A stretch of 64,000 bases of DNA from Prevotella melaninogenica ATCC 25845 (GCF_000144405.1 NC_014371.1:1210501-1274500); one strand, 5' to 3'; counted from the first letter of the stretch, positions 7,123 to 44,756 are shown. Translations and numbers: made by a program. Notes: generated by a model not told the origin, from the letters alone.

Positions 7123-7174
7123 GAAACTGACTTCCCATATAACAAAAGAATAAACGATGAATAAAGAATAGATT

Positions 7175-7864: not shown

Positions 7865-7914
7865 GGTGTACTGACACATCTTCTTTTGTTGGATAATTTC
7901 ATAACCTAAAAATC

Positions 7915-8022
7915 AAAAGGGCGTTAATTCCATTCGAATTAACGCCCTTTTGGCTTGCTAAAGATGCCCTTTAAGAACCTTAATAACGCCCTTCTCAGAC
8001 CTTAGTAAGCACCTTCAAAACC
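7915..8022 (-). repeat. About 108-bp structured repeat (copy A)
   Basis: It starts with a 16-bp perfect hairpin (7915-7930 with 7936-7951; arm AAAAGGGCGTTAATTC). This is followed by degenerate sub-repeats of GGGC(G/A)TT(A/T) type. An inverted copy with roughly 85% identity by eye is at 15346-15453, beyond the susC gene, so the two copies bracket the sulfatase/sus operon. The hairpin can also serve as a terminator for the lipoprotein pair. Confidence 0.8.
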
Positions 8023-8130
8023 GCGACTTTACAAATAACTGATAACAAGATACTTACAAAGGTAACAAAAAAGCTGATTCTCGACTCTATTCCTCACCTT
8101 TTCCGGACCAGAAATGTAAAATAAATTCGG

Positions 8131-8172
8131 ACTTTGAACTTTGAACTTTGAACTTTGAACTTTGAACTTTAT
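8131..8172. repeat. Heptanucleotide tandem repeat ACTTTGA, five copies and a partial
   Basis: Five exact ACTTTGA units run from 8131 to 8165 and a partial unit follows. Similar CAAAGTTCAA-type sequence recurs at 8255-8320, 15680-15710 and 58440-58500. It is non-coding. Confidence 0.85.
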
Positions 8173-8180
8173 GATATGAA

Positions 8181-8247
8181 CTACGAATTTCTCTAATTGC
8201 ACGAATCCTTATTGCTAAAGAATTCGTGTCATTCGCGAAATTCGTAG
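8181..8247. repeat. Imperfect inverted repeat, arms CTACGAATTTC / GAAATTCGTAG
   Basis: The outer 11 bases of each arm are perfectly complementary and the inner parts partly so. A half copy lies at about 2430-2456. It lies downstream of the sulfatase gene and may form an mRNA 3' structure. Confidence 0.7.
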
Positions 8248-8312
8248 TCTTAGAGGTTAAAGTTCAAAGTTTTATGGTCAAATCATAAAGTTCAATGTTC
8301 AATGTTCAAAGC

Positions 8313-9857: not shown

Positions 9858-9881
9858 ATATAATAAATTGGTTTATCGCAA

Positions 9882-11690: not shown

Positions 11691-11710
11691 AGTTATATTC
11701 TTTTAAAGGA

Positions 11711-28116: not shown

Positions 28117-30960
28117 ATGCCAGTACAAAGTGAAGCGGCCCTTGAGAACGGACTTATTGCTACTCTTCAGCAAATGAACTATGAATATGTACAGATTGAA
28201 GAAGAGAAAAATCTACGGACAAATTTCAAAAGTCAACTTGAGAAACATAACAGGAAGAGACTGGAAGAGATTGGGCGTACGGAGTTTACTGAAGCCGAAT
28301 TTGAGAAAATCTTGATTTATCTTGAGGGTGGCACACGTTTTGAAAAGGCAAAGAAACTCCGTGACCTCTTTCCACTTGAACTGGATAATGGAGAACGCCT
28401 GTGGGTGGAATTCCTGAACCGCACCCACTGGTGTCAGAACGAGTTTCAGGTTTCCCATCAGATTACTGTTGAAGGAAGAAAGAAGTGTCGTTATGACGTG
28501 ACGATACTAATAAATGGTTTACCTTTGGTTCAGATAGAGCTAAAGCGCAGAGGGGTAGAGCTGAAACAGGCTTACAACCAGATACAACGTTATCATAAGA
28601 CCTCGTTCCATGGACTGTTTGACTATGTGCAGCTGTTTGTTATCTCCAACGGAGTGAACACGCGTTATTTTGCCAACAATCCGAATAGTGGCTACAAATT
28701 CACATTCAATTGGACAGACGCTGCTAATGTACCTTTCAATGAATTGGAAAAGTTCGCCACCAGCTTCTTTGATAAATGCACGTTAGGCAAGATAATAGGC
28801 AAGTATATCGTACTGCACGAAGGAGATAAATGCCTAATGGTGTTGCGTCCTTACCAGTTCTATGCCGTCGAGAAGATACTTGACCGTGTGAAAAATTCCA
28901 ATAACAATGGCTATATATGGCATACAACTGGTGCGGGAAAAACGCTGACTTCATTTAAGGCTGCCCAGCTTGTAGCCGAATTAGACGATGTGGACAAGGT
29001 TATGTTTGTTGTTGACAGGCACGACCTTGACACACAGACGCAGTCCGAATATGAGGCATTTGAGCCAGGTGCTGTTGACAGTACCGATAACACAGATGAA
29101 CTTGTGAAGCGCCTTCATGGTAATTCCAAAATTATCATCACCACCATCCAGAAGCTCAATGCTGCTGTAAGTAAGCAGTGGTATAGCAGGCGGATTGAAG
29201 AAATCCGTCATGCTCGTATCGTGATGATTTTTGATGAGTGTCATCGCAGTCATTTCGGAGATTGCCATAAGAATATCGTCAGGTTTTTCGACAATACACA
29301 GATATTCGGATTTACAGGTACACCTATCTTCGTTGAGAATGCTGTGGATGGTCATACAACAAAGGAAATCTTCGGCAATTGCCTCCACAAGTATCTGATA
29401 AAGGATGCCATTGCTGATGAAAATGTACTTGGTTTCCTCGTAGAATATTATCATGGCAATGCCGATGTAGATAATGCTAACCAAAACCGTATGACGGAAA
29501 TTGCCAAATTTATCCTTAATAATTTCAATAAATCAACATTTGATGGCGAATTTGATGCTTTGTTTGCCGTGCAGTCTGTATCAACACTTATTCGATATTA
29601 TAAAATATTCAAGAGTCTTAATCCCAAAATAAGAATAGGAGCCGTGTTTACATACGCATCTAACAGCAGCCAGGACGACGCCCTTACAGGTATGAATACT
29701 GGTAGCTATGTGAGTGAAAGTACGGGCGAAGCAGATGAGTTACAGGCTATTATGGATGATTATAATGATATGTTCGGTACAAGTTTCACTACAGAAAACT
29801 TCCGTGCATATTATGACGACATCAATCTTCGTATGAAGAAAAAGAAAACAGACATGAAGCCACTTGACCTCTGTCTGGTAGTCGGCATGTTCCTAACGGG
29901 CTTTGACAGCAAGAAACTCAATACACTCTATGTGGATAAGAATATGGACTATCATGGATTATTACAAGCATTCAGTCGTACAAACCGTGTTTTGAATGAA
30001 AAGAAACGTTTTGGCAAGATTGTTTGCTTCCGTGATTTGAAAAGCAATGTGGATGCTTCTATCAAGCTTTTCAGTAACAGCAATAATCTTGAAGATATTG
30101 TCCGTCCGCCTTTTAATGAAGTCAAGAAGAATTATCAGGAACTTACGACAAACTTCTTAGAACAATACCCAACTCCCAGCAGCATAGATTTGTTGCAGAG
30201 CGAGAAAGATAAAAAGCAGTTTATCCTTGCATTCCGTGATGTCATTAAGAAACATGCAGAGATTCAGGTTTACGATGAATTTGAAGAAGATGCTGCAGAT
30301 CTTGGTATGACAGAGCAGCAATTTATGGACTTCCGAAGCAAATACCTTGATATTTACGATACATTTGCCGGTGGCTGTAAGCCTTCAGAAGAAAATCAAA
30401 CGCCTGACGAAGATACAGAGTCCACGGAAACCTCAACAGAGTCAGGTATTGATGATATTGATTTCTGTTTAGAATTGTTGCATAGTGATATTATCAATGT
30501 AACTTACATACTTGAACTGATCGCTGATCTTAATCCTTACAGCGCAGATTATAAGGAAAAACGTACGTATATTATTGATACGATGATTAAAGATGCTGAG
30601 TTACGTAACAAGGCAAAACTGATTGATGGCTTTATACAGCAGAACGTCGATGATGACCGAGATAACTTTATGGCACGCAAACAGAAGTTTGACGGTACAA
30701 GCGACCTTGAAGAACGATTGAACAATTACATCACGACTGAGCGGAACAACGCAGTAGATAAACTTGCAAAAGAAGAGGGTTTGGATGTAACGGTTCTCAA
30801 TCATTACTTGTCTGAATATGACTACTTGCAAAAGGAACAACCAGAAATTATACAAGAGGCGTTGAAAGAAAAGCATTTAGGATTAATAAAAAAACGCAAA
30901 ACATTGACAAGGATTCTCGACCGCTTGAAGTCTATCATACGAACATTCAGTTGGGAATAA
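28117..30960 (+). CDS. hsdR: Type I restriction enzyme, endonuclease/translocase subunit
   Basis: The 947-residue protein has the HsdR order. The N-terminal PD-(D/E)XK nuclease has YDVTILINGLPLVQIELKR near residues 125-145. The superfamily 2 motor has HTTGAGKTLTSF (Walker A near 272), MIFDECHRSHFG (DECH near 373), FGFTGTPIF and VGMFLTGFDSKKLNTLYVDK. A helical C-terminal region binds HsdM. It pumps DNA past the complex and cuts at random distance from unmethylated sites. Length is normal for the short HsdR group. All motifs are intact. Confidence 0.94.
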   Translation: MPVQSEAALENGLIATLQQMNYEYVQIEEEKNLRTNFKSQLEKHNRKRLEEIGRTEFTEAEFEKILIYLEGGTRFEKAKKLRDLFPLELDNGERLWVEFLNRTHWCQNEFQVSHQITVEGRKKCRYDVTILINGLPLVQIELKRRGVELKQAYNQIQRYHKTSFHGLFDYVQLFVISNGVNTRYFANNPNSGYKFTFNWTDAANVPFNELEKFATSFFDKCTLGKIIGKYIVLHEGDKCLMVLRPYQFYAVEKILDRVKNSNNNGYIWHTTGAGKTLTSFKAAQLVAELDDVDKVMFVVDRHDLDTQTQSEYEAFEPGAVDSTDNTDELVKRLHGNSKIIITTIQKLNAAVSKQWYSRRIEEIRHARIVMIFDECHRSHFGDCHKNIVRFFDNTQIFGFTGTPIFVENAVDGHTTKEIFGNCLHKYLIKDAIADENVLGFLVEYYHGNADVDNANQNRMTEIAKFILNNFNKSTFDGEFDALFAVQSVSTLIRYYKIFKSLNPKIRIGAVFTYASNSSQDDALTGMNTGSYVSESTGEADELQAIMDDYNDMFGTSFTTENFRAYYDDINLRMKKKKTDMKPLDLCLVVGMFLTGFDSKKLNTLYVDKNMDYHGLLQAFSRTNRVLNEKKRFGKIVCFRDLKSNVDASIKLFSNSNNLEDIVRPPFNEVKKNYQELTTNFLEQYPTPSSIDLLQSEKDKKQFILAFRDVIKKHAEIQVYDEFEEDAADLGMTEQQFMDFRSKYLDIYDTFAGGCKPSEENQTPDEDTESTETSTESGIDDIDFCLELLHSDIINVTYILELIADLNPYSADYKEKRTYIIDTMIKDAELRNKAKLIDGFIQQNVDDDRDNFMARKQKFDGTSDLEERLNNYITTERNNAVDKLAKEEGLDVTVLNHYLSEYDYLQKEQPEIIQEALKEKHLGLIKKRKTLTRILDRLKSIIRTFSWE

Positions 30961-30971
30961 TATATTCAACA

Positions 30972-31622
30972 ATGATAAAGATAATAAGAGGTTTAGATAT
31001 AACAGCTTTGGGAGTCTGTGTGTATAACCGTAAGTGGCAATCTGTCCATCTACAACAAGGAGATATGGATGGAGCTTGCGCCGTTTATTCAATGATGATG
31101 AATCTTATAGTACTAAAGGTCTTCACTCGTAATCAAGTTACAAACTTAAATACATCGTTTAAAGGCAACACTGCCAAGGGAAGGCTTTTCAAGGAGTTTT
31201 TTGTAAAGGAAGGGTTGTGTCGTGATGGCTTCTATTTCTCAGAAATCAAAGAAAAGTTGTCTCATTCTTTTGCAAAAGAGGTTATGTCGTCAGCTCGGCA
31301 ATATATGATTTCTCAATCAGCCCAAGCTTCGTATGTAGAGGAACTTAAAAAAGGAATAGACGACAACTTACCTTTGGTTACTGCAATTACATTTAAAGGT
31401 GGTGCTCATGCAATACTTGCCATTGGTTATGAAGAGGAAGAAGGTGTTATTAGGAAAATATTTTGTTTAGACCCTGGGCATGCAATAAGTCAAACCGCCT
31501 TATGGAATAGCGTTATAATTCTAAATGAGGGGAAAGGTATGTATTGCCATCAGTATATAACAGATAAAGACGATGAAAACGTCTTTGTTAGTGAAACGTT
31601 GAAAATAGAAAGGAAAAAATAA
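30972..31622 (+). CDS. Putative papain-like/C39-like cysteine peptidase embedded in the type I operon
   Basis: The 216-residue protein has a candidate Cys-His-Asp triad. C36 is in GDMDGACAVYS, at a helix start as in C39/papain folds. H146 is in FKGGAHAILAIGYEEE. D167 is in FCLDPGH. The GxHAxxxIGY strand is typical of peptidase C39-like proteins. I prefer the ATG at 30972; a TTG at 30951 would overlap hsdR. It ends one base before hsdM, so it is clearly part of the operon, yet no protease belongs to standard type I systems. It lacks a signal peptide. Whether it is a suicide effector, a regulator of the complex or an active protease at all is open. Confidence 0.6.
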   Translation: MIKIIRGLDITALGVCVYNRKWQSVHLQQGDMDGACAVYSMMMNLIVLKVFTRNQVTNLNTSFKGNTAKGRLFKEFFVKEGLCRDGFYFSEIKEKLSHSFAKEVMSSARQYMISQSAQASYVEELKKGIDDNLPLVTAITFKGGAHAILAIGYEEEEGVIRKIFCLDPGHAISQTALWNSVIILNEGKGMYCHQYITDKDDENVFVSETLKIERKK

Positions 31623-31623: not shown

Positions 31624-33180
31624 ATGAGCGAAGAATTACAACAGAAACTCCGTGACCAACTTTGGGAAGTTGCTAACAAACTGCGTGGCAATATGTCGGC
31701 AAGTGACTTCATGTATTTCACCCTTGGCTTTATCTTCTACAAGTATTTGTCGGAGAAGATAGAGAAACACGCCAATGATGCATTGGTGGATGATGAGGTC
31801 ACCTTCAAGGAATTATGGTCAATGGAAAAAGATACCGATATCGAAGAGCTACAAGAGAGCGTAAAGACCGAATGTATCGAAAATATTGGCTATTTCATAG
31901 AACCTAACTTCTTGTTCTCATCCGTTATTGAGAGTATTAAAAAGAAAGAAAATATCCTGCCGATACTTGAGCGTTCTTTGAAGCGTATTGAAGATAGTAC
32001 TCTGGGGCAAGATAGCGAAGAGGACTTTGGCGGTTTGTTCTCAGACATAGACCTCGCCTCGCCTAAATTGGGAAAGACAGCCGATGATAAAAATACATTG
32101 GTCAGTAATGTACTTCTTGCCCTCGATGACATAGATTTTGGCGTAGAGGCTTCACAAGAGATTGATATTCTTGGCGATGCTTATGAGTATATGATTAGCC
32201 AGTTTGCCGCCGGTGCAGGAAAGAAAGCCGGTGAGTTTTACACTCCGCAGGAAGTTAGCCGTATCTTGGCTGAAATTGTAACCCTCGGCCATGCACGCCT
32301 TCGCAATGTTTATGATCCAACCTGCGGTAGCGGCTCGTTACTGCTCCGTGCAGCAAGTATAGGACATGCTAATGAGATATTCGGACAGGAGAAGAATCCC
32401 ACAACCTACAATCTTGCTCGCATGAATATGCTCCTTCATGGCATCAAATTCAGCAACTTCCGTATAGAGAATGGCGACACACTCGAAGCCGATGCTTTTG
32501 GTGACACTCAGTTTGATGCAGTTGTTGCCAACCCTCCGTTCTCTGCTGAGTGGAGTGCTGCTGATAAGTTCAACAATGATGACCGTTTCAGCAAGGCAGG
32601 ACGGCTTGCTCCACGCAAGACAGCTGATTATGCGTTCATCCTCCACATGCTTTATCACTTAAACGAGGGTGGAACTATGGCTTGCGTTGCTCCTCATGGT
32701 GTTCTCTTCCGTGGAAATGCTGAGGGGGTAATCCGCCGCTTCCTCATTGAGAAGAAAAACTATGTGGATGCTATCATCGGTCTACCTGCCAACATTTTCT
32801 ATGGCACAAGCATCCCTACCTGTATTCTGGTGTTTAAGAAATGCCGTAAGGAAGACGACAGTATTCTCTTCATTGATGCCAGCAAGGATTTTGAGAAGAT
32901 AAAGACACAGAACAAGCTCCGCCCACAGCATATACAGAAGATTGTTGACACCTACCGTGATCGCAAGGAGATTGAGAAATACAGCCACCTTGCCACCTTG
33001 GAGGAGATAGCCGAAAACGATTACAACCTCAACATTCCTCGTTACGTTGATACTTTCGAGGAGGAAGAACCTATTGACATCCATGCCGTAATGAAGGAAA
33101 TCAAGGATCTGGAAGCCAAGCGTGCCGACCTTGACAAAGAAATTGAAGGTTATTTGAAAGAATTGGGATTGGTTGAATAA
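31624..33180 (+). CDS. hsdM: Type I restriction enzyme, adenine methyltransferase subunit
   Basis: The 518-residue protein has the HsdM N-terminal helical domain (EVANKLRGNMSASDFMYFTLGFIFYKYLSEKI). It carries GEFYTPQEVSRILAEI, the SAM motif DPTCGSGSLLL and the catalytic NPPF in VVANPPFSAEW (about residue 300). It transfers a methyl group to N6 of adenine in the HsdS-defined site and is the core of the M2S1 methylase and R2M2S1 restriction complex. It is close-packed with the peptidase upstream and the GmrSD-like gene downstream (18-base gap). Confidence 0.95.
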   Translation: MSEELQQKLRDQLWEVANKLRGNMSASDFMYFTLGFIFYKYLSEKIEKHANDALVDDEVTFKELWSMEKDTDIEELQESVKTECIENIGYFIEPNFLFSSVIESIKKKENILPILERSLKRIEDSTLGQDSEEDFGGLFSDIDLASPKLGKTADDKNTLVSNVLLALDDIDFGVEASQEIDILGDAYEYMISQFAAGAGKKAGEFYTPQEVSRILAEIVTLGHARLRNVYDPTCGSGSLLLRAASIGHANEIFGQEKNPTTYNLARMNMLLHGIKFSNFRIENGDTLEADAFGDTQFDAVVANPPFSAEWSAADKFNNDDRFSKAGRLAPRKTADYAFILHMLYHLNEGGTMACVAPHGVLFRGNAEGVIRRFLIEKKNYVDAIIGLPANIFYGTSIPTCILVFKKCRKEDDSILFIDASKDFEKIKTQNKLRPQHIQKIVDTYRDRKEIEKYSHLATLEEIAENDYNLNIPRYVDTFEEEEPIDIHAVMKEIKDLEAKRADLDKEIEGYLKELGLVE

Positions 33181-33198: not shown

Positions 33199-35307
33199 AT
33201 GAAAGGTTATGCAAAACCATTATATGAATTTATAGAAGGCAATAAAATCCAATTTGTAATTCCTGTCTATCAGCGTAATTACGATTGGTTGATAGATAAT
33301 TGCGATCAGCTGCTTAGCGACTTGGTAAAACTAAGTCGCTTAAACAGATATTCTCATTTCTTTGGTTCTATCGTCACATCGTCTGCCGATAATAATAGCT
33401 ACAATAGGTTGGTAATAGATGGACAGCAACGTTTGACCACCATTTCACTTCTTCTTTTGGCTGGAATAAAGGCAGTAAAAGATGATGCTATAGAAATAAG
33501 TGATAAGAAGAGAGTTGAAGAAGCTTATGAGGTTTTCTTGAATGCTAAGTTCTGTAACGCCGAACGTAAAATTAAATTAGTACCTATTGAGAATGACCGA
33601 ATTGCCTACGACAAGATTTTTAATGGTGAGGGTTCCTTTAATGAAGAGTCTAAGATTACTCGCAATTATCACCATTTCTATGAGAAGTTGACGAGAAGAC
33701 CACAATTATTGTCATTTGACCAATTGCTTGATGCCATCGAACGCTTGCAAATCATTTCAATAGAATTGGACAAAGATGATGATGCACAGCTCATTTTTGA
33801 AAGTCTTAACTCTACTGGATTGGCTCTTACAGAGGCAGACAAGATACGCAATTATCTTCTGATGTCCTTGACACCAGAAGAGCAACTGGAGTGTTTCAAG
33901 AACTATTGGCAAAAGATAGAACTTGCAACAGAAAGCCAACCAACAAGATTTTTGCGCGATTATCTCACCATCAAGCAACAGCTGCAACGCCCTGTTCGTT
34001 TGTCTAATATTTATTACGAATGGAAGAAGTACATGGAAGGGCATGACCGTAAAGAAGAATTGATTGAAATGTTGGACTATGCACATTACTATCAGCAAGT
34101 GGTGGAGGCAAAACTCTTCACCGCCAAACTTTCTGAGAAAATGCGTCATATCTGCAATATCGAAACAGACGTGGCCAATGTATTCTTCATTCAATTTTTG
34201 AAGTATGCCTCTACTAATGAACTTTCAGAAGCAGAAATGTACAAAGTGATTGACTTGGTGGAAAACTATTTGGCAAGACGTATTGTATGCAACATGCCTG
34301 GCAATGCACTTACACAGGTGTTCTGTGCTTTGCATAAGGATGTACTGAAAAGTCTTGAAGAATATGCCTCTGCTAATATTGAACTTGATTATTCTTATTC
34401 AGATATATTGACTTTTCACATTATGCGTCGTGATGGCAACTATCAGTTGCCAAGAGATGTACAGTTTGTGGAATCAATAAAGACCCGAGATGCCTATCAC
34501 ATGCTTAAGCCGTTCCAAATTTTCCTCTTTGAAAGGTTGGAGAATTCTGTGCATGGTGAATACAATGACGTAGCTATTGATATGAAAAAGAAGGATGCCA
34601 CTATTGAACATATTATGCCGCAAACACTCAGTGGAGAGTGGAAAGCAATGCTTGGTGATAATTTTGAAGAGATACAAGAGAAATACCTTCACACATTTGC
34701 CAACCTGACATTGACAGGCATCAATAGCGAACTTAGCAACAAGCCTTTTGCTATAAAGCGTGATGGCAAGGCAATCGGAAATGAAATATATCCAGGTTAC
34801 AGAAATTCCAAGTATCGCTTGACTAAAAATGTCACTTTGTGCGAGAAGTGGACTGAAACTGAATTGCAAAATCGCAGCAATGAAATTGTGACAATATTTT
34901 TGCGTCTCTATCCATTGCCACAAACCACATTCAAGCCATTGCCTAAGCCTGTTGATGAAGTGTCTCTGGAAGAGGAATCTTTCACTCCGACAAACAGGCA
35001 GCTAAAAGGCTTCCGTCTTTTTGGCAACGAATATACCGAGACAACATGGAAGGAAATGTTATTACGAGTGGTTAAGATGGTTGAACAACAATATACAGAC
35101 ATTGTAGATACACTCTATGATGCTGAAGGCTTCTTTTGGTCAGCCCAACAAGCTGATACAAGATATTGCACACAGATTGCTCCACAAAAATACTTGTGGA
35201 CATCTATGGACAACAGAAGCAAGCTCCGCTGTTTACGATTCCTTTTTGAAAAGTGTGACATTGCCGAGTCTGAATTAGTAATGTTGCTTGAACCTATAAG
35301 AGAATAA
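33199..35307 (+). CDS. GmrSD-like DUF262/DUF1524 protein, putative modification-dependent nuclease
   Basis: The 702-residue protein has an N-terminal DUF262 (ParB-like NTPase) domain: FVIPVYQRNYDW, FFGSIV and VIDGQQRLTTISLLLLAG. The DUF1524 HNH nuclease motif IEHIMPQT (near residue 473) is followed by ANLTLTGINSELSN. About 100 further residues (RQLKGFRLFGNEYTETTWKEMLLRV...) form an extra C-terminal domain. In GmrSD this pair of domains makes a type IV enzyme that cuts glucosylated or other modified DNA. Its place inside a type I operon would cover phages that evade the type I enzyme by modification. Confidence 0.85.
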   Translation: MKGYAKPLYEFIEGNKIQFVIPVYQRNYDWLIDNCDQLLSDLVKLSRLNRYSHFFGSIVTSSADNNSYNRLVIDGQQRLTTISLLLLAGIKAVKDDAIEISDKKRVEEAYEVFLNAKFCNAERKIKLVPIENDRIAYDKIFNGEGSFNEESKITRNYHHFYEKLTRRPQLLSFDQLLDAIERLQIISIELDKDDDAQLIFESLNSTGLALTEADKIRNYLLMSLTPEEQLECFKNYWQKIELATESQPTRFLRDYLTIKQQLQRPVRLSNIYYEWKKYMEGHDRKEELIEMLDYAHYYQQVVEAKLFTAKLSEKMRHICNIETDVANVFFIQFLKYASTNELSEAEMYKVIDLVENYLARRIVCNMPGNALTQVFCALHKDVLKSLEEYASANIELDYSYSDILTFHIMRRDGNYQLPRDVQFVESIKTRDAYHMLKPFQIFLFERLENSVHGEYNDVAIDMKKKDATIEHIMPQTLSGEWKAMLGDNFEEIQEKYLHTFANLTLTGINSELSNKPFAIKRDGKAIGNEIYPGYRNSKYRLTKNVTLCEKWTETELQNRSNEIVTIFLRLYPLPQTTFKPLPKPVDEVSLEEESFTPTNRQLKGFRLFGNEYTETTWKEMLLRVVKMVEQQYTDIVDTLYDAEGFFWSAQQADTRYCTQIAPQKYLWTSMDNRSKLRCLRFLFEKCDIAESELVMLLEPIRE

Positions 35308-35313
35308 AGTCAT

Positions 35314-36759
35314 ATGGAATATATAGATTTCAAGAAATTGATTGATGCTCTGACAGCCAAGCCAAAAGAAACAGAGTGGTTAGAGTTTAAGCACAATTTT
35401 CATTCTAAAGAAGAGATAGGGGAAAGAATCTCAGCCTTGTCGAATAGTTCCTATTTGTGTAATATGCCATTTGGCTATATTGTATTCGGTGTTGATGATA
35501 AAAGCCATGATGTTGTTGGCACCGACTTGTACGGCAAACAAATAATGGTTGGCAACGAAGAACTTGAATCTTGGCTATCAACTCGCTTGAATCCTCGTAT
35601 AGACTTCGAGATTATTGACGATTTCAATTATGAGGATAAAGGTCATGTCTGTATCTTCAAAATTCCAGCAACAATCAATCGCCCTGTAAGTTTCCTACAT
35701 GAAGCATACGTTAGAGTCGGCACAATAACACGCAAGTTGAAGGACTTTCCTGCAAAGGAGGCTAAGATTTGGAAAGGCGATCGTAAATCTTTGGAAAAGA
35801 TTGTCTTGAAAAAAGGATTATCTGGTCAAGACGTTTTCTCCTACCTTAGTGCAGAAACTTATTTTGACATGATGCACTTACCTCTTCCACAAGATACAAA
35901 TGGTATTTTGGATAGGTTTTTAGCTGAAAATTTGATAACGAAAGATGAGATTGGCTACAGTATTACTGAACTTGGGGCCATTCTGTTTGCCAAGCACCTA
36001 TCTGATTTCGATGGTCTGAAGCGAAAAATGGTTAGAGTCATCGTCTATAAAGGCAAAAATAAGATTGAGACCATTCGTGAACAGACTTTCGATAAAGGCT
36101 ATGCCATAGGCTTTGAAGAAATGGTTGCATGGATAAACAGCCAGCTGCCTGCCAATGAGGAGATAGGCATGGCTTTAAGAAAGGATGCCCGTATGTACCC
36201 GGAAATATCCATTCGAGAATTGGCGGCAAACATGATTATTCATCAAGATTTTGCTGTACAGGGCTTTCCGATGATTGAAATCTATTCTGATCGTATTGAA
36301 TTTTCCAACCCAGGGCAACCCCTTATCAGTGTGGAGCGTTTCATAGATGAATATCAGTCAAGAAACGATACTCTTGCAGACATCATGCGCAGAATGGGCA
36401 TTTGTGAGGAAAAAGGTAGTGGTATGGATAAGACCATATTCTATGTGGAACTGTATCAGTTACCACCAGTACGTTTCCAGCTCTATGAAAGCCGAACCAC
36501 TGCAACGGTATTCTCTTATCGGAAATTTGCAGATTTGGATAAGTCCGAGAGAGTGAGGGCTTGTTATCAACACGCCTGTCTCAAATATGTCTCCAATGAA
36601 AAGATGAACAATCAATCTCTTCGCACACGCCTGGGAATAGAGGATAAGAATTATCCAATGGCATCAAGGATAATCAAGGATGCTTTGGAAGCGAAACTGA
36701 TAAAAGAGGAAAATGCAGAGGGAGGTAATAGGCATAACTATATCCCATATTGGGCATAG
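35314..36759 (+). CDS. AlbA_2 (Schlafen-like) plus HATPase-type ATP-binding protein
   Basis: The 481-residue protein opens with the AlbA_2 domain: ETEWLEFKHNFHSKEEIGERISALSNSSYL, GYIVFGVDDKSHDVVGT and YVRVGTITRKL. A GHKL-like ATP-binding segment follows (IRELAANMIIHQDFAVQGFPMIEIYSDRIEFSNPG and EEKGSGMDK). The C-terminal 90 residues look like a winged-helix domain. Proteins of this build are often called transcriptional regulators. They also occur inside many type I restriction loci, where their role is unknown. The gene starts 6 bases after the GmrSD-like gene. Confidence 0.85.
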   Translation: MEYIDFKKLIDALTAKPKETEWLEFKHNFHSKEEIGERISALSNSSYLCNMPFGYIVFGVDDKSHDVVGTDLYGKQIMVGNEELESWLSTRLNPRIDFEIIDDFNYEDKGHVCIFKIPATINRPVSFLHEAYVRVGTITRKLKDFPAKEAKIWKGDRKSLEKIVLKKGLSGQDVFSYLSAETYFDMMHLPLPQDTNGILDRFLAENLITKDEIGYSITELGAILFAKHLSDFDGLKRKMVRVIVYKGKNKIETIREQTFDKGYAIGFEEMVAWINSQLPANEEIGMALRKDARMYPEISIRELAANMIIHQDFAVQGFPMIEIYSDRIEFSNPGQPLISVERFIDEYQSRNDTLADIMRRMGICEEKGSGMDKTIFYVELYQLPPVRFQLYESRTTATVFSYRKFADLDKSERVRACYQHACLKYVSNEKMNNQSLRTRLGIEDKNYPMASRIIKDALEAKLIKEENAEGGNRHNYIPYWA

Positions 36760-36904: not shown

Positions 36905-38128
36905 ATGACAACAACGATAGATAACGAACAAAAGACACTCAATGTCCCAAATCTAAGATTTCCGGAGTTTGAGGGAGAGTGGCAGGAGGAGCGTTTGTCC
37001 GATATTGCAGACATTTCTAAAGGTATAGGCATATCCAAAGACCAACTATCTGCTGACGGTGAACCATGTATTTTGTATGGTGAACTTTACACAAAGTACA
37101 AATCAGAGACAATAAAAGAAGTTATTAGCAAAACCAATATAGATAATACAAAATTGGTAAAGAGTAAGGCTAATGACGTTATAATTCCATGCTCTGGAGA
37201 GACAGCAGAGGAGATTGCAACTGCTCGTTGTGTCCTAAAAGATGATGTTCTTTTGGGTGGGGACTTGAACATTATACGCTTGCATGGATATGATGGCTCG
37301 TTTATGAGCTATCAGTTGAATGGTAAACGTAAGTATGACATAGCCAAAGTTGCGCAAGGGGTATCTGTTGTGCACCTTTATGGTGAACATCTGAAAAATA
37401 TCAAGACAATCAATCCAAGTTTGAATGAACAGAAGAAAATTGCAAATCTTTTGTCCCTTCTTGACGAGCGTATTTCTACCCAAAACAAAATCATTGACAA
37501 GTTAGAATCTTTAATTAAAGGAATTATGGTTGAACTGCAAAAGCAAGGACAAAATAAAGGCAATTGGAGAAATGTACTTCTTAGTAAAGTTCTCAAGGAA
37601 AGGGATGAACGTAACACTAACTTATATCAAGTTTTTTCTGTTTCTGTTAGTCAAGGTGTTATTAATCAAGTAGATTATCTTGGACGTTCATATGCAGCAA
37701 GAGACACATCAAAATATAATGTAGTACATTATGGTGACTTAGTTTATACAAAAAGTCCTACGGGAGCATATCCTTATGGTATAGTTAAACAAAACTTTAA
37801 CCAAGAAAATGTTGCAGTTTCACCACTATATGGTGTTTATATACCCAATAGTCTTTCTGTTGGAAGATATCTCCATGAATATTTTAGGAGTGAAATAAAT
37901 ACGCACAACTATTTGCATCCGCTGATTCAAAAAGGAGCAAAGAACACCATTAACATTACAAATCAACGATTCTTAGAAAATAGTGTCCCGATTCCTGTAT
38001 GTGCTAATGAACTATTGCTGATCTCAAAATTGTTACTTTCTTTTAATGACAAAATTAAATATCAGCAAAGCATACTACAACAATATCAGAAACAAAAACA
38101 ATACTTGCTCCGCCAGATGTTTATATAA
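36905..38128 (+). CDS. hsdS: Type I restriction enzyme, specificity subunit (expressed copy)
   Basis: The 407-residue protein has two target-recognition domains separated by a conserved helical spacer (EQKKIANLLSLLDERISTQNKIIDKLESLIKG, about 180-210), and a matching spacer at the C-terminus (LLRQMFI end). Each TRD reads half of a bipartite DNA site. The 5' segment NVPNLRFPEFEGEWQ, the central spacer and the last residues are each repeated, inverted, in the start-less hsdS at 38121-39347. This is the layout of an invertible specificity locus. The two genes meet tail to tail at a 16-bp palindrome (38117-38132). Confidence 0.93.
   Translation: MTTTIDNEQKTLNVPNLRFPEFEGEWQEERLSDIADISKGIGISKDQLSADGEPCILYGELYTKYKSETIKEVISKTNIDNTKLVKSKANDVIIPCSGETAEEIATARCVLKDDVLLGGDLNIIRLHGYDGSFMSYQLNGKRKYDIAKVAQGVSVVHLYGEHLKNIKTINPSLNEQKKIANLLSLLDERISTQNKIIDKLESLIKGIMVELQKQGQNKGNWRNVLLSKVLKERDERNTNLYQVFSVSVSQGVINQVDYLGRSYAARDTSKYNVVHYGDLVYTKSPTGAYPYGIVKQNFNQENVAVSPLYGVYIPNSLSVGRYLHEYFRSEINTHNYLHPLIQKGAKNTINITNQRFLENSVPIPVCANELLLISKLLLSFNDKIKYQQSILQQYQKQKQYLLRQMFI
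36941..36982 (+). repeat. hsdS 5' inverted repeat (expressed copy)
   Basis: These 42 bases (AATGTCCCAAATCTAAGA...) match the reverse complement of 39291-39332 with two mismatches. They are a candidate crossover site for swapping the first target-recognition domain. Confidence 0.9.
37481..37524 (+). repeat. hsdS central inverted repeat (expressed copy)
   Basis: 44 bases (CAAAACAAAATCATTGACAA...) are identical to the reverse complement of 38713-38756. They encode the spacer helix between the two recognition domains and are a candidate crossover site for swapping the second domain. Confidence 0.92.
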
Positions 38129-38132
38129 ACAT
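38117..38132. repeat. 16-bp palindrome at the hsdS/hsdS' junction
   Basis: ATGTTTATATAAACAT is perfectly palindromic and contains the shared stop codons of both hsdS frames. Confidence 0.85.
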
Positions 38133-38712
38133 TTGACGGAGAAGGTAATGGCGTAATTTTTTATATAGATTTAAATGCTCAAGTTCGTTTTGTGAACAAT
38201 TTTTTAGTCTTTGAATTTTCTGATAGAAAAAAGTTTGTTCTGATAATGATGGTATTCTTATTTTATATGACAAGAAATCTTCAGGCGAAACAGACATTCT
38301 TTCATATACTGTGCCTTGCTCAAACTTTCGTATTTTTTCTATAAAATTACGATTGGTAAGATATAGCTCAATAAATCCAATATTGACTTTTTTTGAAATC
38401 TCAAAAGTTACATATATTGGTGAAAATATTAAATCACCATATATATTTCTACAAATAACCCCGAACTTTAAGTTGGCTGGATTATAACAAATATCATCAA
38501 GATGAGTAATTTTATATTTCTTATTTTCTTCTTTTACAAGGAAATCTCTATTCCAACGTTCTGTTTTTGGGAAAAGTCCATCTTTTGAAAGTGTTCCATG
38601 AACAAACGTTCCATCTTTGCAACAATATTCATTTCTTTCTTTGAGGATATCTCTTAATCTTATACTTTTCATTTCCTGACTATGCGATAACTTCAAAAAA
38701 TAGTTGTTACAT

Positions 38713-38756
38713 ATTCCTTTAATTAAAGATTCTAACTTGTCAATGATTTTGTTTTG
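38713..38756 (-). repeat. hsdS central inverted repeat (silent copy)
   Basis: Reverse complement is identical to 37481-37524 over 44 bases. Confidence 0.92.
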
Positions 38757-39290
38757 AGTAGAGATGCGTTCGTCTATTAACCGAAGCAACGTGGCAATTT
38801 TCTTCTGTTCTCCTTTTGAAGGAATACCAATATAACATTCTGAAAAGTTCTTGCTGTTAATTGAATATATCTTTGTGCCCTGTGCAATTCTTCTAATCTG
38901 TTGATGAAATGCCGTAGAAGAAAAGGCATACCCTTTATATCCAACAATGGTTTTATGCTGGTTGTCTCTTCCATGAATAGTATGCAATCCACAAATCACA
39001 TCCTTGCCGTTAAGATTATAGAACTCAACAGCTTTAGCAACTTCGTTCGTATCTTCCGAAGCATCAGCAAAAGCAATATCCCCTTCTTGACAAAGCTCAT
39101 AGTTTTTGGGAGTGTTGCCACTCACAATATTAGGCAATTTGTCATTATCAAGGTCAACCATTGTTGGCAATCCTACATGTATCAAACCATAATGTAAATT
39201 CTGAATAGCATTCGTGCCATATTCTAATTTATCCCAACTAAGTGAGTTTGTTGAATAGAAGTCCAACAACTCCGAAACCTTACAGTTCTT

Positions 39291-39332
39291 CCACTCCCCC
39301 TCAAACTCCGGGAATCTTAGATTTGGGACATT
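39291..39332 (-). repeat. hsdS 5' inverted repeat (silent copy)
   Basis: Reverse complement matches 36941-36982 with two mismatches in 42 bases. Confidence 0.9.
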
Positions 39333-39385
39333 AGTTAATACGTTTCTCTAATTATTATGTACCTTTTCTATATTAAGGATTAAAT

Positions 39386-40312
39386 ATGAAAACAAAAACT
39401 ATTAGAGAAATTTCGTTGGCTTGGAAAAGAGACAAGCAACGCTACGTCAAGCAGTCTACATACGCTGCTTATGTGTTAGTTTTGGAAAATCACATACTTT
39501 CATCGTTTGGTGATTGTGACAGTCTTAGTGAAAAACTTGTACAAGAATTTGTGCTACAAAAACTTAATGCTGGTCTCAGCATTAAAACGGTGAAGGACAT
39601 TCTCATTGTGTTGAAAATGGTGATGAAGTTCGGAGTAAAGAACGGTTGGATGAACTATTGCGAATGGGACATCAAGTATCCAACTACAGTAATCAATAAA
39701 GAAATGGAGGTGCTGACAGTGACACACCACAAAAAGATTCTCGATTTCATCAAGCAGAACTTTACATTTCGCAACCTTGGCATCTACATTAGTCTAACCA
39801 CAGGCTTGCGGATTGGTGAGGTATGCGGCTTGAAATGGTCGGACATCAATACAGACAGCGGTATAATCACCGTAAACCGTACCATTGAGCGTATCTACAT
39901 CGTAGAAGGTGAGCGCAGGCACACAGAATTAGTCATCAACAGCCCAAAGACCAAGAACTCTTGCCGTGAGATACCAATGAACAAAGAACTCTTGGCTATG
40001 GTGAAACCACTGAAAAAGGTAGTAAATATTAATTTCTATGTGCTGACCAACGAAGAAAAACCTACTGAGCCACGAACCTATCGAAACTATTATCATCGGT
40101 TAATGAAGCATTTGGACATTCCTCGGCTGAAATATCACGGGCTGCGCCACAGTTTCGCCACACGCTGCATCGAAAGTAACTGTGAATATAAGACGGTTAG
40201 CGTGTTGCTCGGGCATGCGAACATCACTACAACTCTCAACCTCTATGTTCATCCCAATATGGAACAGAAGAAGCGGTGTATTACGCAGATGCTTAAATAC
40301 CTCAGGAAGTAA
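39386..40312 (+). CDS. Tyrosine recombinase, probable hsdS invertase
   Basis: The 308-residue protein has an N-terminal SAM-like DNA-binding domain and a C-terminal catalytic domain. The full active-site set is present: R142 (TGLRIGEV), H251 and R254 (HGLRHSFATR), H277 (LLGHAN) and nucleophile Y287 (LNLYVHP). It cleaves and rejoins DNA strands at short sites. It lies directly beside the silent hsdS cassette. Related recombinases in Bacteroides invert hsdS segments, so this is most probably its job. An alternative is integration of the island, but no att duplication is visible. Confidence 0.88.
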   Translation: MKTKTIREISLAWKRDKQRYVKQSTYAAYVLVLENHILSSFGDCDSLSEKLVQEFVLQKLNAGLSIKTVKDILIVLKMVMKFGVKNGWMNYCEWDIKYPTTVINKEMEVLTVTHHKKILDFIKQNFTFRNLGIYISLTTGLRIGEVCGLKWSDINTDSGIITVNRTIERIYIVEGERRHTELVINSPKTKNSCREIPMNKELLAMVKPLKKVVNINFYVLTNEEKPTEPRTYRNYYHRLMKHLDIPRLKYHGLRHSFATRCIESNCEYKTVSVLLGHANITTTLNLYVHPNMEQKKRCITQMLKYLRK

Positions 40313-40380: not shown

Positions 40381-40621
40381 CTTTTGTCAGACGTATTAGT
40401 TCATGCAACAACACCTTTACGCTTTTATCAGCCGTATAAACTCAAATCGGTCATTAGACCACAATGTTTCAGGAATTCTTTTTTGGGGCTTCAGAATTTT
40501 GGAAGTCCCCCCTCACCTTACTAACGCTCCGCACTCTAAGTGCGAAGGCTTAGCACCACATGTGCAGAGGACCTATAACATTAAAAGAATAGGAAAAACC
40601 TCAGCAAACGTATGGTGAATA

Positions 40622-41650
40622 GTGCGACATATAGGGAGAAAAAACTGAATGTAAAGCATTCGTGAGAGTCGACAAAAAAGGAACATATTTGGCACTTATA
40701 GATTAAATAGGTGGAAACAGACTGTCGAAAGTTCTGCTATAAATCAAAAATACGCTGCTTGGCGAGCATAAAGCGACAAAAAGGGAATATTTTTTTAAGA
40801 CGCAATAAAACAGTATAACTCACTGATTATCATCATAAGTACGAATATTGATAAAAGTAAAGTGCGACAAAAAAGTGACAAGTTTTTGTACTTTTCTAAC
40901 GTAAAAGAGAAAGGGAATATCCATAACTTACTTAATATCAATGCTTTATCAAATAAATAGAGTAGGGTAGTGTCGAAAATAGCTTCCCTATTTGTCTCCG
41001 CTATCTTTAAACGATAAAACAGCGTTTTGCGAATGATTAAGAACGAAAAAGGGCTTAGGTGCGACAAAAAAGGAGGAAAAACTCTCATGCCAAAACCTAT
41101 AAAAAGTATGTCGACAAAGTCATGAAAAGGAGAAAACTCAATGCGAATAACCTTCCTAAAATGTGAACATAAAAACCGAAAAGTTTGAACAATGAAAAGA
41201 AGAAATAATCCTTCTAAATTCGATACGAATACCGACAAGCTGATGACAAAGAAAAACATACAAACGTTCTGGCGCATCACCGCCCTTTAATCATTGAACA
41301 CAAGGAAGTAAAGAATAGCCTCTAAGATGATTAAAAGTCGATAATATACTGATACACAAATATATAAAAACATATTTGAAGATAATAAGGATTCTGTATA
41401 ACCGCCTAAAAAACAACCGAATAAAGCAAAGATCAACGGTAATAAAAATAAGAAAACGAAACAAAACCTACTACCAAACCGACATGAATCTCACCAAAAT
41501 TTCCTACCCGAAACCACCGACTAAAAACCCACAAAACCATGAAACGGAAATGAAAACCCGACTCAAAACACTCGTCCTACAAGCCTACAGCAAAACAGAA
41601 AACGCCTGCACCGCTCCTAAAACGTATGTGCGACAAAAAGGGAGGTTGCG
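40622..41650 (+). repeat. Dispersed (G)TGCGACAAAAAGGGA motif cluster in a gene-free tract
   Basis: Versions of TGCGACAAAAAGGGA, or the shorter GTCGACAAA form, occur at about 40622, 40667, 40771, 40862, 41059, 41110, 41231 and 41628, nearly all on the plus strand. The open frames here (40795-41280 minus and 41376-41732 plus) are biased in composition and read through the motifs, so I treat the tract as non-coding. Confidence 0.75.
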
Positions 41651-41812
41651 CCCAAAAACTTTGTTTAAAGTCTTCTTCCCCCAGCGAAAAAGTATATATT
41701 TTCTCAAAACAAAACACCTCTTCTTAACTTAGAATATCGTTATATATTCTTTATTAGATATTAGTAGAGGCCCTCAAAGCCATTGAACCTTAAATAGTTA
41801 CACGACTAATCG

Positions 41813-41954
41813 ACGACAAATTAGTAACTTAGCGGCGACAGATTAGTAAGTAGGTTGCGACAAATTAGTAACTATGGTGCGACACTTTAGTAGCTATTGG
41901 GGTGGGGTAGTCGACAAGTTAGGAGGTTAGGTGCGACGAATAGGGAAAGAATAA
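41813..41954 (+). repeat. Six iteron-like direct repeats, mostly 22 bp apart
   Basis: Units starting GCGACAAATTAGTAAC begin at 41813, 41835, 41857, 41879, 41911 and 41933. The spacings are 22, 22, 22, 32 and 22 bases. The first four units share CGACA..TTAGTA; the last two shade into the CGACAA..TAGGGA form. Two-turn spacing on one face of the helix is characteristic of initiator-binding iterons. One more GCGACAAATTAGTAAC-type copy is near 42180, and another is at 58195. Confidence 0.85.
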
Positions 41955-42239
41955 GGCTTCGTTATGAAAAATATAAACAAATTCTCTCTTTTTATAACGA
42001 ATATTCCTTTCTTTCACTTCTTTTCCAGTGCTTCTTCCATAAATAAACTTGTGATTTTCTGAATTTGGTCTTCTTTATTTTATCTTATAAACTATTGTAT
42101 TTTTGATAGTTACGAATTCTTCTCTAAACGTTCGAGACAAAAAGGGAAGATATCGCCCAATCTTCTGTTTACTATTTCTCGACAAATTAGTAAGTTCGTA
42201 AAAATACTTTACATAAAAGACCCTTTAAACCAGACATAA

Positions 42240-42430
42240 TGAACGGAAGACATAATGGACAGAGTATGTAAAAGACAAAGTAACAGGGGAACAGAAGCCA
42301 TAATGACATAATGGACAGAAGCCAAAATGACAGACAGAATGAACAGAAGTTATAATGACAGACAGAATGCCGCAGAAGCCATAATGACATAATGGACAGA
42401 AGTCATAATGACATAAGTAAAAAGACATAG
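42240..42430 (+). repeat. GACAGA/ATAATGACATAATGG repeat block
   Basis: CAGAAGCCATAATGACATAA occurs at 42292 and 42373 (81 bases apart), with many partial GACAGAATGA units between. The same word set appears at 22853-22940 and 46960-47000. Frames on the minus strand (MSLWLLRHSVCHYNF and similar) are translations of the repeat and not genes. Confidence 0.75.
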
Positions 42431-42433
42431 AAG

Positions 42434-42479
42434 TGCCCCTCCCCCGTAGGGAGGGGAGTGAACACCGAGATACCCTTTA
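42434..42479 (-). repeat. GC-rich palindromic repeat with GGGTATCTCG leader (reverse)
   Basis: Reverse orientation of the composite found at 18427, 58836 and 60519. Confidence 0.75.
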
Positions 42480-42482
42480 GGC

Positions 42483-42606
42483 TGTGGCAAGAAATAGTAA
42501 ACGGAAGCTAATAAGCCTTCTTTGCCTTAAAAAAACTCTTAGATTGTGGCAAGAAATAGTAAACGGAAACTAACAAATCCTCTTTGTCTTAAAAGCCTTC
42601 TTAAGC
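42483..42606 (+). repeat. 62-bp tandem duplication
   Basis: TGTGGCAAGAAATAGTAAAC begins at 42483 and 42545, and similarity continues through CCT(T/C)CTTTG(C/T)CTTAAAA. It lies upstream of the McrB-like gene. Confidence 0.8.
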
Positions 42607-42659
42607 TTATAAGGCTTATTAGCACTATTCTTCCAATATAATATCCCAAGCTTTGTTTT

Positions 42660-42884: not shown

Positions 42885-44747
42885 ATGGGGTTGAATAACA
42901 GATTACAGATAGGGGATGTATCAAACAATGGTCAGGTAGAGATTGTTGATGAGGACAGATTATGTTATTTGGTAAGGTCAACAAGTAAAGGTGCTACAGG
43001 TTTACGTACAATCTCAAAGAGTCTGTTGGAAGAATATGTAAACTATTGGAGTGAGCATTCTGATGCTACATCTGAATCTGCAAGGCAAGCATTGTCTGGA
43101 ACCAGTGAGATAGATAAGTATGAGTATGGTTATACGTCCACACTGTCGGTAATGGCTCAAATGGTTCTTCAATCAACTCACAAAGTAAAGAATAACGTAA
43201 GCAGTCTCCCCCGCCAGCAAATCTTCTACGGTGCACCAGGCACTGGTAAGTCATTTACAATCAATCAGGAGATAAAGGGGGAGGACGTAATTCGTACTAC
43301 GTTCCATCCTGATAGTGACTATTCGTCTTTTGTGGGAGCGTATAAGCCGACGACACGAGAGATAACGATGCGTGACTTGTCGGGACATCCTGTTGTTGAG
43401 CATGGGCAGACACTGACGGAGGAGAAGATTGTCTATGAGTTTGTACCGCAGGCTTTTCTACAAGCATATATTGGAGCATGGGAGAAGTATGCTGCGTGTG
43501 ATGAAGGCAATCCACATCGACAGTTCTTAGTGATAGAAGAGATTAATCGAGGTAACTGTGCACAGATCTTTGGTGATTTATTCCAGCTCTTAGACCGCAA
43601 CCATAGCGGTTTCTCTGACTATCCTGTGAAGGCAGATACCGATATGAAACGTTATGTGGCTAAAGCACTAAAGGGATTGACTATTCCTCAGGCAGGTGCC
43701 ATCAATAGCCTTTATGGTGGTCGTGATGTAGTGAGCGAGGTGTTGGAGGGTAATATTCTCCTACTGCCAAGTAATCTGTTTATTTGGGCAACGATGAACA
43801 CCAGCGACCAGAGTCTGTTCCCTATAGACTCAGCTTTTAAGCGTCGTTGGGATTGGAGCTATATGCCAATATCGGATGCAAAGAAAGGTTATGTCATTGA
43901 TGTTGCGGGCAGTCAATATGACTGGTGGCAGTTCTTAGAGGAGATAAACGAGAAGATAGAGAACACGACCAATTCGGAGGATAAGAAGTTGGGCTATTTC
44001 TTTTGTAAGGCACATGGAGGCGTTATTAGCGCAGAGACATTTGTGGGTAAGGTTGTCTTCTACCTTTGGAATGATGTATTTAAGGACTTCGATTTAGTAG
44101 GTCCTATCTTTGATGATACAGTTGAAGGTGGAAGACTAACGTTTGCAAAGTTCTATACTGAGGGCGAAATGAAGACCAAGGTAAGGGCGGAGAAAGTGGC
44201 ACAGTTCCTTGGTAACTTAGGCTTAACACCACTTGAGGAAAGCGAAGAGGAATACAACGGACAGGCTGAGAGTACAGATGACTCTGAGAATCCAAGGGCG
44301 ACATGGTCGGTGACAGAACGAAAGCGTTATGATTTTTGGCAGGCATTCTTAGCCTATGCACAAAAGAATGACGAGTTTAAGACTTACTTTGGAGGAACCA
44401 AGAAGGCTGGTAAGGATCATTGGAAGAATTTCTATGTATCTGGTGCCGATTTCTATATGTCTGTAGTTCTGAAACTTTGGGAGCGTGCTATTGCACTGCA
44501 AGTATATTTCGATAGAACCACAGATACCTATTATCATCTTGCTACGCAGAAAAAAGAGATTGAAGCAGAGATGGATACAACGTATGAGTGGCGTGAGAAT
44601 CCAGAAAAGAAATCAAGTACGATTGTAGAGCGGATAGACGATATAGATTTTGAGGATAAAGAACATTGGACTACTATTTTCGATCTTATTATTACACGAA
44701 CACTTCGTATGCGTGAGGTCTTTGTTAAGTATTCAAAGCAGCAGTAG
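42885..44747 (+). CDS. McrB-like AAA+ GTPase/ATPase restriction subunit
   Basis: The 620-residue protein has an N-terminal domain of about 110 residues, presumably DNA-binding. The McrB motor carries FYGAPGTGKSFT (Walker A, about 114-125), TTFHPDSDYSSFVGAYKP, FLVIEEINRGNCAQIFGDLFQLLDR (Walker B) and the guanine-selecting MNTSDQSLFPIDSAFKRRWDW. McrB hexamers translocate DNA and activate the McrC-type nuclease. The C-terminal extension of about 200 residues (RATWSVTERKRYDFWQAFLAYAQ...) looks like a DUF4268-style domain. The next gene starts 9 bases later. Confidence 0.9.
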   Translation: MGLNNRLQIGDVSNNGQVEIVDEDRLCYLVRSTSKGATGLRTISKSLLEEYVNYWSEHSDATSESARQALSGTSEIDKYEYGYTSTLSVMAQMVLQSTHKVKNNVSSLPRQQIFYGAPGTGKSFTINQEIKGEDVIRTTFHPDSDYSSFVGAYKPTTREITMRDLSGHPVVEHGQTLTEEKIVYEFVPQAFLQAYIGAWEKYAACDEGNPHRQFLVIEEINRGNCAQIFGDLFQLLDRNHSGFSDYPVKADTDMKRYVAKALKGLTIPQAGAINSLYGGRDVVSEVLEGNILLLPSNLFIWATMNTSDQSLFPIDSAFKRRWDWSYMPISDAKKGYVIDVAGSQYDWWQFLEEINEKIENTTNSEDKKLGYFFCKAHGGVISAETFVGKVVFYLWNDVFKDFDLVGPIFDDTVEGGRLTFAKFYTEGEMKTKVRAEKVAQFLGNLGLTPLEESEEEYNGQAESTDDSENPRATWSVTERKRYDFWQAFLAYAQKNDEFKTYFGGTKKAGKDHWKNFYVSGADFYMSVVLKLWERAIALQVYFDRTTDTYYHLATQKKEIEAEMDTTYEWRENPEKKSSTIVERIDDIDFEDKEHWTTIFDLIITRTLRMREVFVKYSKQQ

Positions 44748-44756
44748 ACACTCGTT

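What the first reader, a model, noticed from the sequence alone, without database searches (positions are those of the whole stretch)
36905..40312. Invertible hsdS locus: three inverted repeat sets, silent cassette and recombinase
The expressed and silent hsdS share a 42-bp 5' repeat (two mismatches), a 44-bp identical central repeat and the palindromic 3' end, while all four recognition domains differ. The silent copy has no start codon. Inversion at either repeat set predicts four specificities and four methylomes. The adjacent tyrosine recombinase has all catalytic residues.
Basis: partly seen in the sequence, partly recalled or inferred. Interest (0 to 1): 0.72.

Follow-up and report, generated by a model that had tools for sequence, protein, structure and literature searches.

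The report
DNA-flipping restriction-modification specificity switch
This is a bacterial restriction-modification system in which a neighbouring recombinase can flip DNA segments to swap the parts that choose which sequence is methylated and cut, giving four predicted versions; it is a well-formed example of a mechanism already known in other bacteria, including a related Prevotella.

Summary
A complete type I system (hsdR, hsdM, hsdS) is followed by a convergent, start-less second hsdS and an intact tyrosine recombinase. Two inverted repeat pairs (45 nt at 93%; 62 nt at 94%, with 44 nt identical) bracket four dissimilar recognition domains. In silico inversion gives four open HsdS frames (407, 415, 403, 419 aa). 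The claimed third repeat set is one self-complementary 3' junction and does not behave as a crossover site.

I fetched 80 related loci, nearly all Bacteroidales. All 39 well-covered ones with the recombinase carry an antisense hsdS. In Prevotella sp. S7-1-8, between collinear flanks, the window's silent first domain lies inverted, in the expressed slot (95.6% over 477 bp). Within loci the repeat copies share synonymous codons (89% versus 54% between loci at the 5' site), and the central homogenised block is about 15 bp. Draft contigs break at these sites more often than chance (17 of 33, p about 2e-9). Inversion is very likely real and recurrent.

It is a new member of a known kind: inverting type I loci (Atack 2020; pneumococcal cod/SpnIII; P. 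intermedia). What is added here is the crossover map and family survey.

The parts
28117..30960 (+). hsdR, type I restriction subunit, 947 aa
   Evidence: Pfam HSDR_N, SWI2_SNF2, EcoR124_C; TIGR00348 over cut-off
30951..31622 (+). C39-peptidase-like accessory gene between hsdR and hsdM (role unknown)
   Evidence: Weak Pfam Peptidase_C39_2, E 2e-4, just below cut-off; relatives at the same place in other Prevotellaceae loci
31624..33180 (+). hsdM, type I methyltransferase subunit, 518 aa
   Evidence: N6_Mtase, HsdM_N; TIGR00497 hsdM over cut-off
33199..35307 (+). GmrSD-type (type IV-like) gene nested between hsdM and hsdS; cargo, not needed for the switch
   Evidence: GmrSD_N and GmrSD_C; absent from most related loci
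35314..36759 (+). AlbA_2/Schlafen-type gene nested between hsdM and hsdS; cargo
   Evidence: SLFN_AlbA_2, HATPase_c_4
36905..38128 (+). Expressed hsdS, 407 aa, domains A then B
   Evidence: Methylase_S; PADLOC Specificity_I over full length
36941..36985 (+). 5' inverted repeat, left copy (crossover site 1)
   Evidence: 45 nt, 93%; homogenised within loci
36986..37426 (+). Recognition domain A (first slot, expressed)
   Evidence: Family found in 5 expressed and 5 silent first slots, window included
37463..37524 (+). Central inverted repeat, left copy (crossover site 2); core CAAAACAAAATCATTGA at 37481-37497
   Evidence: 62 nt, 94%; core match; per-base homogenisation
37525..38075 (+). Recognition domain B (second slot, expressed)
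   Evidence: Family in 3 expressed and 4 silent second slots plus 2 half-cassettes
38117..38132 (.). 3' palindrome ATGTTTATATAAACAT shared by the two convergent gene ends; not a useful inversion pair
   Evidence: at least 15 of 16 bases in 55 of 77 related genes; C-terminal codons not homogenised
38124..39332 (-). Silent hsdS', open frame without start codon, domains C then D
   Evidence: Frame and upstream stop; Methylase_S
38174..38712 (-). Recognition domain D (second slot, silent)
   Evidence: 99.3% DNA identity over 539 bp in the silent copy of Hallella colorans (L025)
38713..38774 (-). Central inverted repeat, right copy; core at 38740-38756
38811..39287 (-). Recognition domain C (first slot, silent)
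   Evidence: Lies inverted, in the expressed slot, in Prevotella sp. S7-1-8 (L024), 95.6% over 477 bp
39288..39332 (-). 5' inverted repeat, right copy
39386..40312 (+). Tyrosine recombinase, 308 aa, presumed inversion enzyme
   Evidence: Phage_integrase; R142 K188 H251 R254 H277 Y287 invariant in 39 of 39 sequences; nearest solved relative Int 6EMY

Best explanation
An inverting (shufflon-type) type I restriction-modification locus. The adjacent tyrosine recombinase crosses over between the two 5' repeats, or between the two central repeats, and flips the DNA between them. Flipping at the central site swaps the second recognition domain of the expressed hsdS with that of the silent copy; flipping at the 5' site swaps both domains; the two together give the fourth combination. 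Only the copy joined to the fixed start codon at 36905 is translated, so a cell has one of four HsdS proteins (A-B, C-D, A-D, C-B) and one of four predicted methylation and restriction specificities. Shown: the anatomy, open frames in all four states, conservation. Inferred from comparative evidence: that inversion happens, with crossovers in the two short cores. Inferred from association only: that this recombinase does it, and that the outcome is methylome switching.
For: Two inverted repeat pairs around four dissimilar domains. All four simulated states keep a full frame: 407, 415, 403, 419 aa. Domain C lies inverted, in the expressed slot, between collinear 99.2% and 90.7% flanks in L024. 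Families of domains A, B and C occur in expressed and in silent genes. Repeat copies are homogenised within loci: same-residue codons identical 0.89 within versus 0.54 between at the 5' site and 0.89 versus 0.74 at TQNKII, with flat controls (0.44/0.40 upstream, 0.51/0.51 at the C-terminus) and 0 of 2000 permutations. 17 of 33 contigs that break in this region end within 50 bp of a core, about 10% expected, p 1.8e-9. All 39 well-covered loci with the recombinase have an antisense hsdS. Catalytic residues invariant. A 2371-bp hsdS inversion and multiple type I motifs were observed in P. intermedia (PMC5608340).
Against: No reads or methylome from this strain. L024 is another species whose other three domains differ, so its inverted domain C also involved domain replacement. 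Homogenisation could partly come from gene conversion. In pneumococcus the longer repeats can invert without PsrA, so the recombinase may not serve both pairs.
Confidence: 0.9

Rival explanations
1. Inversion happens, but by RecA-type homologous recombination or an unlinked recombinase; the adjacent recombinase is a relic or acts elsewhere.
For: Recombinase-independent inversion at the 298-bp and 85-bp repeats is reported for pneumococcus. The genome has about 15 tyrosine-recombinase matches.
Against: The homogenised central block is only about 15 bp, very short for RecA. The recombinase is intact, adjacent and present in all 39 well-covered loci that have it together with an antisense hsdS. 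No other copies of the repeats were found in the genome at the search threshold.
Confidence: 0.1
2. A frozen locus: the second hsdS is a dead duplicate that no longer recombines in this strain.
For: No orientation data for this strain. Relatives show decay: hsdS lost and hsdM broken in L104, frame breaks in L105.
Against: The silent frame is fully open with no start codon, the repeats are 93-94% identical and the recombinase is intact. A gene that is never expressed should decay.
Confidence: 0.06
3. Slow between-strain exchange of domains by horizontal transfer explains the swapped domains; within-cell inversion is rare or absent.
For: Closely related loci carry different domain sets, and HsdM is 98-99% identical across genera, a sign of transfer.
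Against: Transfer alone does not explain the inverted repeats, the antisense silent gene in every well-covered locus with the recombinase, within-locus codon matching, or contig breaks at the cores.
Confidence: 0.07
4. Both hsdS copies are expressed at once, giving two fixed specificities.
For: An in-frame TTG at 39269 could start a 382-aa product.
Against: That start lies after the conserved 5' segment, so the product would lack the conserved N-terminus, and the copy is antisense to the operon.
Confidence: 0.03

Closest known systems
Inverting type I R-M loci (Atack et al. 2020, PMC7394358), including the Streptococcus suis four-way switch
   Same: hsdS plus a second variable hsdS' directly downstream, inverted repeats before the first domain and between the domains, four predicted alleles, often a recombinase at the locus
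   Different: No difference in kind found; different host group and sequences, and extra defence genes between hsdM and hsdS
Phase-variable type I systems of Prevotella intermedia (PMC5608340, PMC5690328)
   Same: Rearranging hsdS pair in the same genus; a 2371-bp inversion observed and several type I motifs reported
   Different: The ATCC 25611 study mentions no recombinase or inverted repeats in its text; sequence relationship not tested here
Streptococcus pneumoniae cod/SpnIII locus with PsrA (PMC4948785, PMC7096588)
   Same: Tyrosine recombinase at the locus, inverted repeats in hsdS genes, one expressed copy, a 15-bp repeat strictly dependent on PsrA
   Different: Three hsdS genes and three repeat pairs there; two genes and two pairs here. 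Some Bacteroidales relatives with half-cassettes look closer to it. Site and enzyme sequences not compared
Streptococcus pneumoniae SpnIV/tvr locus (PMC6265443)
   Same: Recombinase-linked shuffling of hsdS domains
   Different: Excision and reintegration rather than inversion; the window's locus has inverted pairs instead

Membership tests
Type I restriction-modification system | HsdR, HsdM and HsdS subunits encoded together | tested here: met
Inverting type I R-M locus | Second variable hsdS in opposite orientation directly downstream | tested here: met
Inverting type I R-M locus | Inverted repeats upstream of the first domain and between the domains | tested here: met
Inverting type I R-M locus | All recombined states give an intact hsdS frame | tested here: met
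Inverting type I R-M locus | Recombinase/integrase at the locus (common, not universal) | tested here: met
Inverting type I R-M locus | Alternative orientations seen in nature | tested here: inconclusive
   Inverted domain C in a different species with near-identical flanks and contig breaks at the sites; no within-strain reads
Inverting type I R-M locus | Different methylation motifs per allele | not testable with these tools
   Needs long-read methylomes
Tyrosine recombinase | R-K-H-R-H/W-Y catalytic set | tested here: met
   R142 K188 H251 R254 H277 Y287, invariant in 39 of 39 sequences
SpnIII/cod-type locus | Three hsdS genes with three inverted repeat pairs | tested here: not met
   Two hsdS genes and two useful pairs
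SpnIV/tvr-type locus | Direct repeats in hsdS copies with excision and reintegration | tested here: not met
   Repeats in the hsdS region are inverted; no direct-repeat family among the listed ones lies within the hsdS genes

The most novel reading that the evidence does not exclude
A Bacteroidales-wide, horizontally spread family of hsdS shufflons in which one dedicated recombinase acts on two different short cores (a 5' core starting at GTNCC and a central core of about 15 bp, CAAAACAAAATCATTGA). Because the cores differ, crossovers stay within a pair, so first- and second-position domains are shuffled largely independently. Relatives with spare second-domain half-cassettes would reach more than four specificities, and the operon doubles as a landing site for other defence genes.
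Probability: 0.5. Interest if true: 0.45.

Novelty: new member of a known kind. Interest (0 to 1): 0.33.

Why it matters
It predicts four methylomes and four restriction specificities in one strain, which affects phage defence, transformability and any methylation study of this Prevotella. The comparative mapping narrows the crossovers to short cores shared by dozens of Bacteroidales loci. That makes the recombinase reaction directly testable on plasmids and gives a simple signature for finding such switches.

Tried and rejected
The 3' palindrome as a third crossover site was rejected: C-terminal codons are not homogenised within loci (0.51 versus 0.51), and a single self-complementary junction cannot invert anything in a two-gene locus. 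Strict slot fidelity of domains was rejected as an absolute rule: at 55% identity there are 31 first-slot/second-slot pairs against 206 first-first and 105 second-second; at 70% none remains between full-gene slots. The 70% inverted match of domain C in L152 (same contig as L030) was dropped as evidence because it sits in the second slot. The central core was not found in the Bacillota relative L102 or in L114. No other repeat copies were found elsewhere in the genome at the search threshold. No paper held P. melaninogenica together with phase variation and restriction-modification. A half-site common to the 5', central and 3' repeats was looked for by eye only and not established. Comparison with the pneumococcal repeat sequence was not possible: its letters did not appear in the passages read.

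Full report
WHAT IS THERE. The window lies in a 3,168,282-base genome of two contigs, 1,796,408 and 1,371,874 bases. From memory these are the sizes for Prevotella melaninogenica ATCC 25845; I did not test the name. A run of genes on the plus strand reads hsdR (28117-30960), a C39-peptidase-like gene (30951-31622), hsdM (31624-33180), a GmrSD-type gene (33199-35307), an AlbA_2/Schlafen-type gene (35314-36759) and hsdS (36905-38128); domain assignments are. A second hsdS on the minus strand runs tail to tail with the first. Its frame is open from an in-frame TAG just upstream of the 5' repeat to a stop that lies in overlap with the first gene, and has no ATG, GTG or TTG before or within the 5' repeat. 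A 308-aa tyrosine recombinase follows at 39386-40312.

REPEATS. The 5' pair is 45 nt at 93% (36941-36985 / 39288-39332). The central pair is 62 nt at 94% (37463-37524 / 38713-38774) with 44 identical bases. The central and 5' cores occur without mismatch only twice each in the window, against 0.07 and 0.03 expected in shuffles, and a whole-genome DNA search found no further copy at its threshold. The four recognition domains between the repeats are dissimilar; only B and D show clear though remote similarity, 23%. The third set in the finding is a 16-bp palindrome where both genes end; it is one site, not a pair.

LOGIC. With domains A-B expressed and C-D silent, inversion at the central pair gives A-D, at the 5' pair C-D, and both give C-B. 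Doing this in silico keeps a full frame from the same ATG each time: 403, 415 and 419 aa, against 407 now. This is the four-allele scheme drawn by Atack et al. 2020, PMC7394358.

RELATED LOCI. A scan of GTDB genomes with HsdM returned 80 loci, nearly all Bacteroidales, 73-99% identical with one Bacillota outlier at 57%. About forty reach from hsdM through to the recombinase and share the plan: expressed hsdS, antisense hsdS', recombinase. Many also carry second-domain half-cassettes of about 200 aa in alternating orientation. Among 47 loci with at least 4.5 kb held downstream of hsdM, all 39 with the recombinase have an antisense hsdS. Three have neither, including the Bacillota outlier with a single hsdS. 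The other five have an antisense hsdS but their contigs end before any recombinase.

DIRECT TRACE OF INVERSION. Prevotella sp. S7-1-8 (L024) has flanks 99.2% (490 bp, left) and 90.7% (979 bp, right, with the recombinase) identical and collinear with the window. Domain C, silent in the window, lies there in reverse orientation, in the expressed slot, 95.6% identical over 477 bp and 99% as protein. Hallella colorans (L025) has a relative of domain A expressed (79%) and domain D silent (98%), with other partners. The caveat is that L024's remaining domains differ from the window's, so domain replacement also occurred in one of the lineages. Across loci, families of domains A, B and C occur in both expressed and silent genes.

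CROSSOVER MAP. In about 32 loci I compared the two copies of each repeat with each other and with copies from other loci, using only codons for the same residue. At the 5' site 310 of 349 (0.89) are identical within loci and 0.54 between. At TQNKII in the centre the figures are 0.89 and 0.74. Controls show little or no effect: the codons just upstream (xEQKKIAxLLxL) 0.44 and 0.40, the C-terminal codons 0.51 and 0.51. None of 2000 permutations reached the observed identity at either site. Base by base, the central block with full identity lies within CAAAACAAAATCATTGA, and the 5' block begins sharply at the V codon, GTNCC. Loci whose two copies have different coiled-coil tails still share this central block. 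This is the pattern expected if strand exchange repeatedly happens there; gene conversion would look similar.

ASSEMBLY BREAKS. Of 33 contigs that end between hsdM and the recombinase, 17 end within 50 bp of a 5' or central core; about 10% were expected, p 1.8e-9. I classed the 17 by reading the contig ends, with one doubtful case (L063) counted as a miss. Because the repeats are shorter than common assembly k-mers, branching there suggests mixed orientations in the sequenced samples, but this is indirect.

RECOMBINASE. R142, K188, H251, R254, H277 and Y287 are invariant in 39 sequences. The nearest solved structure by sequence is the Int protein 6EMY. It reaches no NCBIfam cut-off. Its role in inversion is inferred from position, conservation and analogy with PsrA.

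KNOWN OR NEW. The mechanism is known. Atack 2020 found such repeats in 3.9% of hsdS genes and names Bacteroides fragilis among the carriers. Haigh 2017 (PMC5690328) reports phase-variable type I systems in all P. intermedia genomes it sequenced. The P. intermedia ATCC 25611 study (PMC5608340) observed a 2371-bp inversion, variants in one library and several type I motifs. A 2018 survey (PMC5903667) found signs of inversion at type I systems in 13 species. In pneumococcus PsrA strictly needs a 15-bp repeat, close in size to the central core mapped here; I did not compare sequences. I therefore file this as a new member of a known kind.

LIMITS. No reads, methylomes or expression data were available. 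The genome collections hold one genome per species, so orientation differences within a species could not be counted. The within-locus comparison treats loci as independent although some are related.

Noticed in passing
L114 (G000 C1:1408000-1424000), coordinates 2459-12216: A second type I system in the same genome with hsdM, its own tyrosine recombinase, a full hsdS, two half-size hsdS genes and a Fic-like gene, with direct (not inverted) repeats of up to 104 nt between the hsdS copies. It looks like the excision-type (SpnIV/tvr) arrangement, so one genome may hold two different hsdS shuffling mechanisms.
   Followed up: partly
window 30951-31622: A C39-peptidase-like gene sits between hsdR and hsdM here and in at least ten related loci. 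Half of 74 related loci (36) have a gap of over 300 bp there, with other gene types in other loci. Whether it tempers self-restriction after a switch is an open guess.
   Followed up: partly
window 33199-36759: A GmrSD-type and an AlbA_2/Schlafen-type gene are nested between hsdM and hsdS; close relatives keep both, most others lack them, so the operon seems to collect defence genes.
   Followed up: partly
window 38117-38132 and the same junction in related loci: The 3' palindrome ATGTTTATATAAACAT is kept at 15 or 16 of 16 bases in 55 of 77 related hsdS genes although it shows no sign of being a crossover site. Overlapping convergent stops may explain part of it; the rest is unexplained.
   Followed up: partly
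L035, L037, L042, L044, L048, L052, L064, L066, L073, L080, L084, L088: Extra second-domain half-cassettes of about 200 aa lie between the two full hsdS genes in alternating orientation, which should raise the number of reachable specificities above four.
   Followed up: partly
L104 and L105 (same genus, recombinase 98% and 96% identical): Decayed versions of the locus: in L104 hsdS is missing and hsdM is broken while the recombinase remains; in L105 both hsdS copies have frame breaks, which could be sequencing error.
   Followed up: partly
window 40600-42640: A 2-kb stretch between the recombinase and the next gene pair holds many diverged copies of short motifs such as GCGACAAAAAAGG, CGACAAATTAGTAA and GACATAATGGACAGAAG, some in tandem, of unknown nature.
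   Followed up: no
window 42885-46931: A gene pair with an AAA domain protein carrying a DUF4268 end, followed by a 724-aa protein without Pfam match; probably a McrBC-like restriction pair.
   Followed up: no
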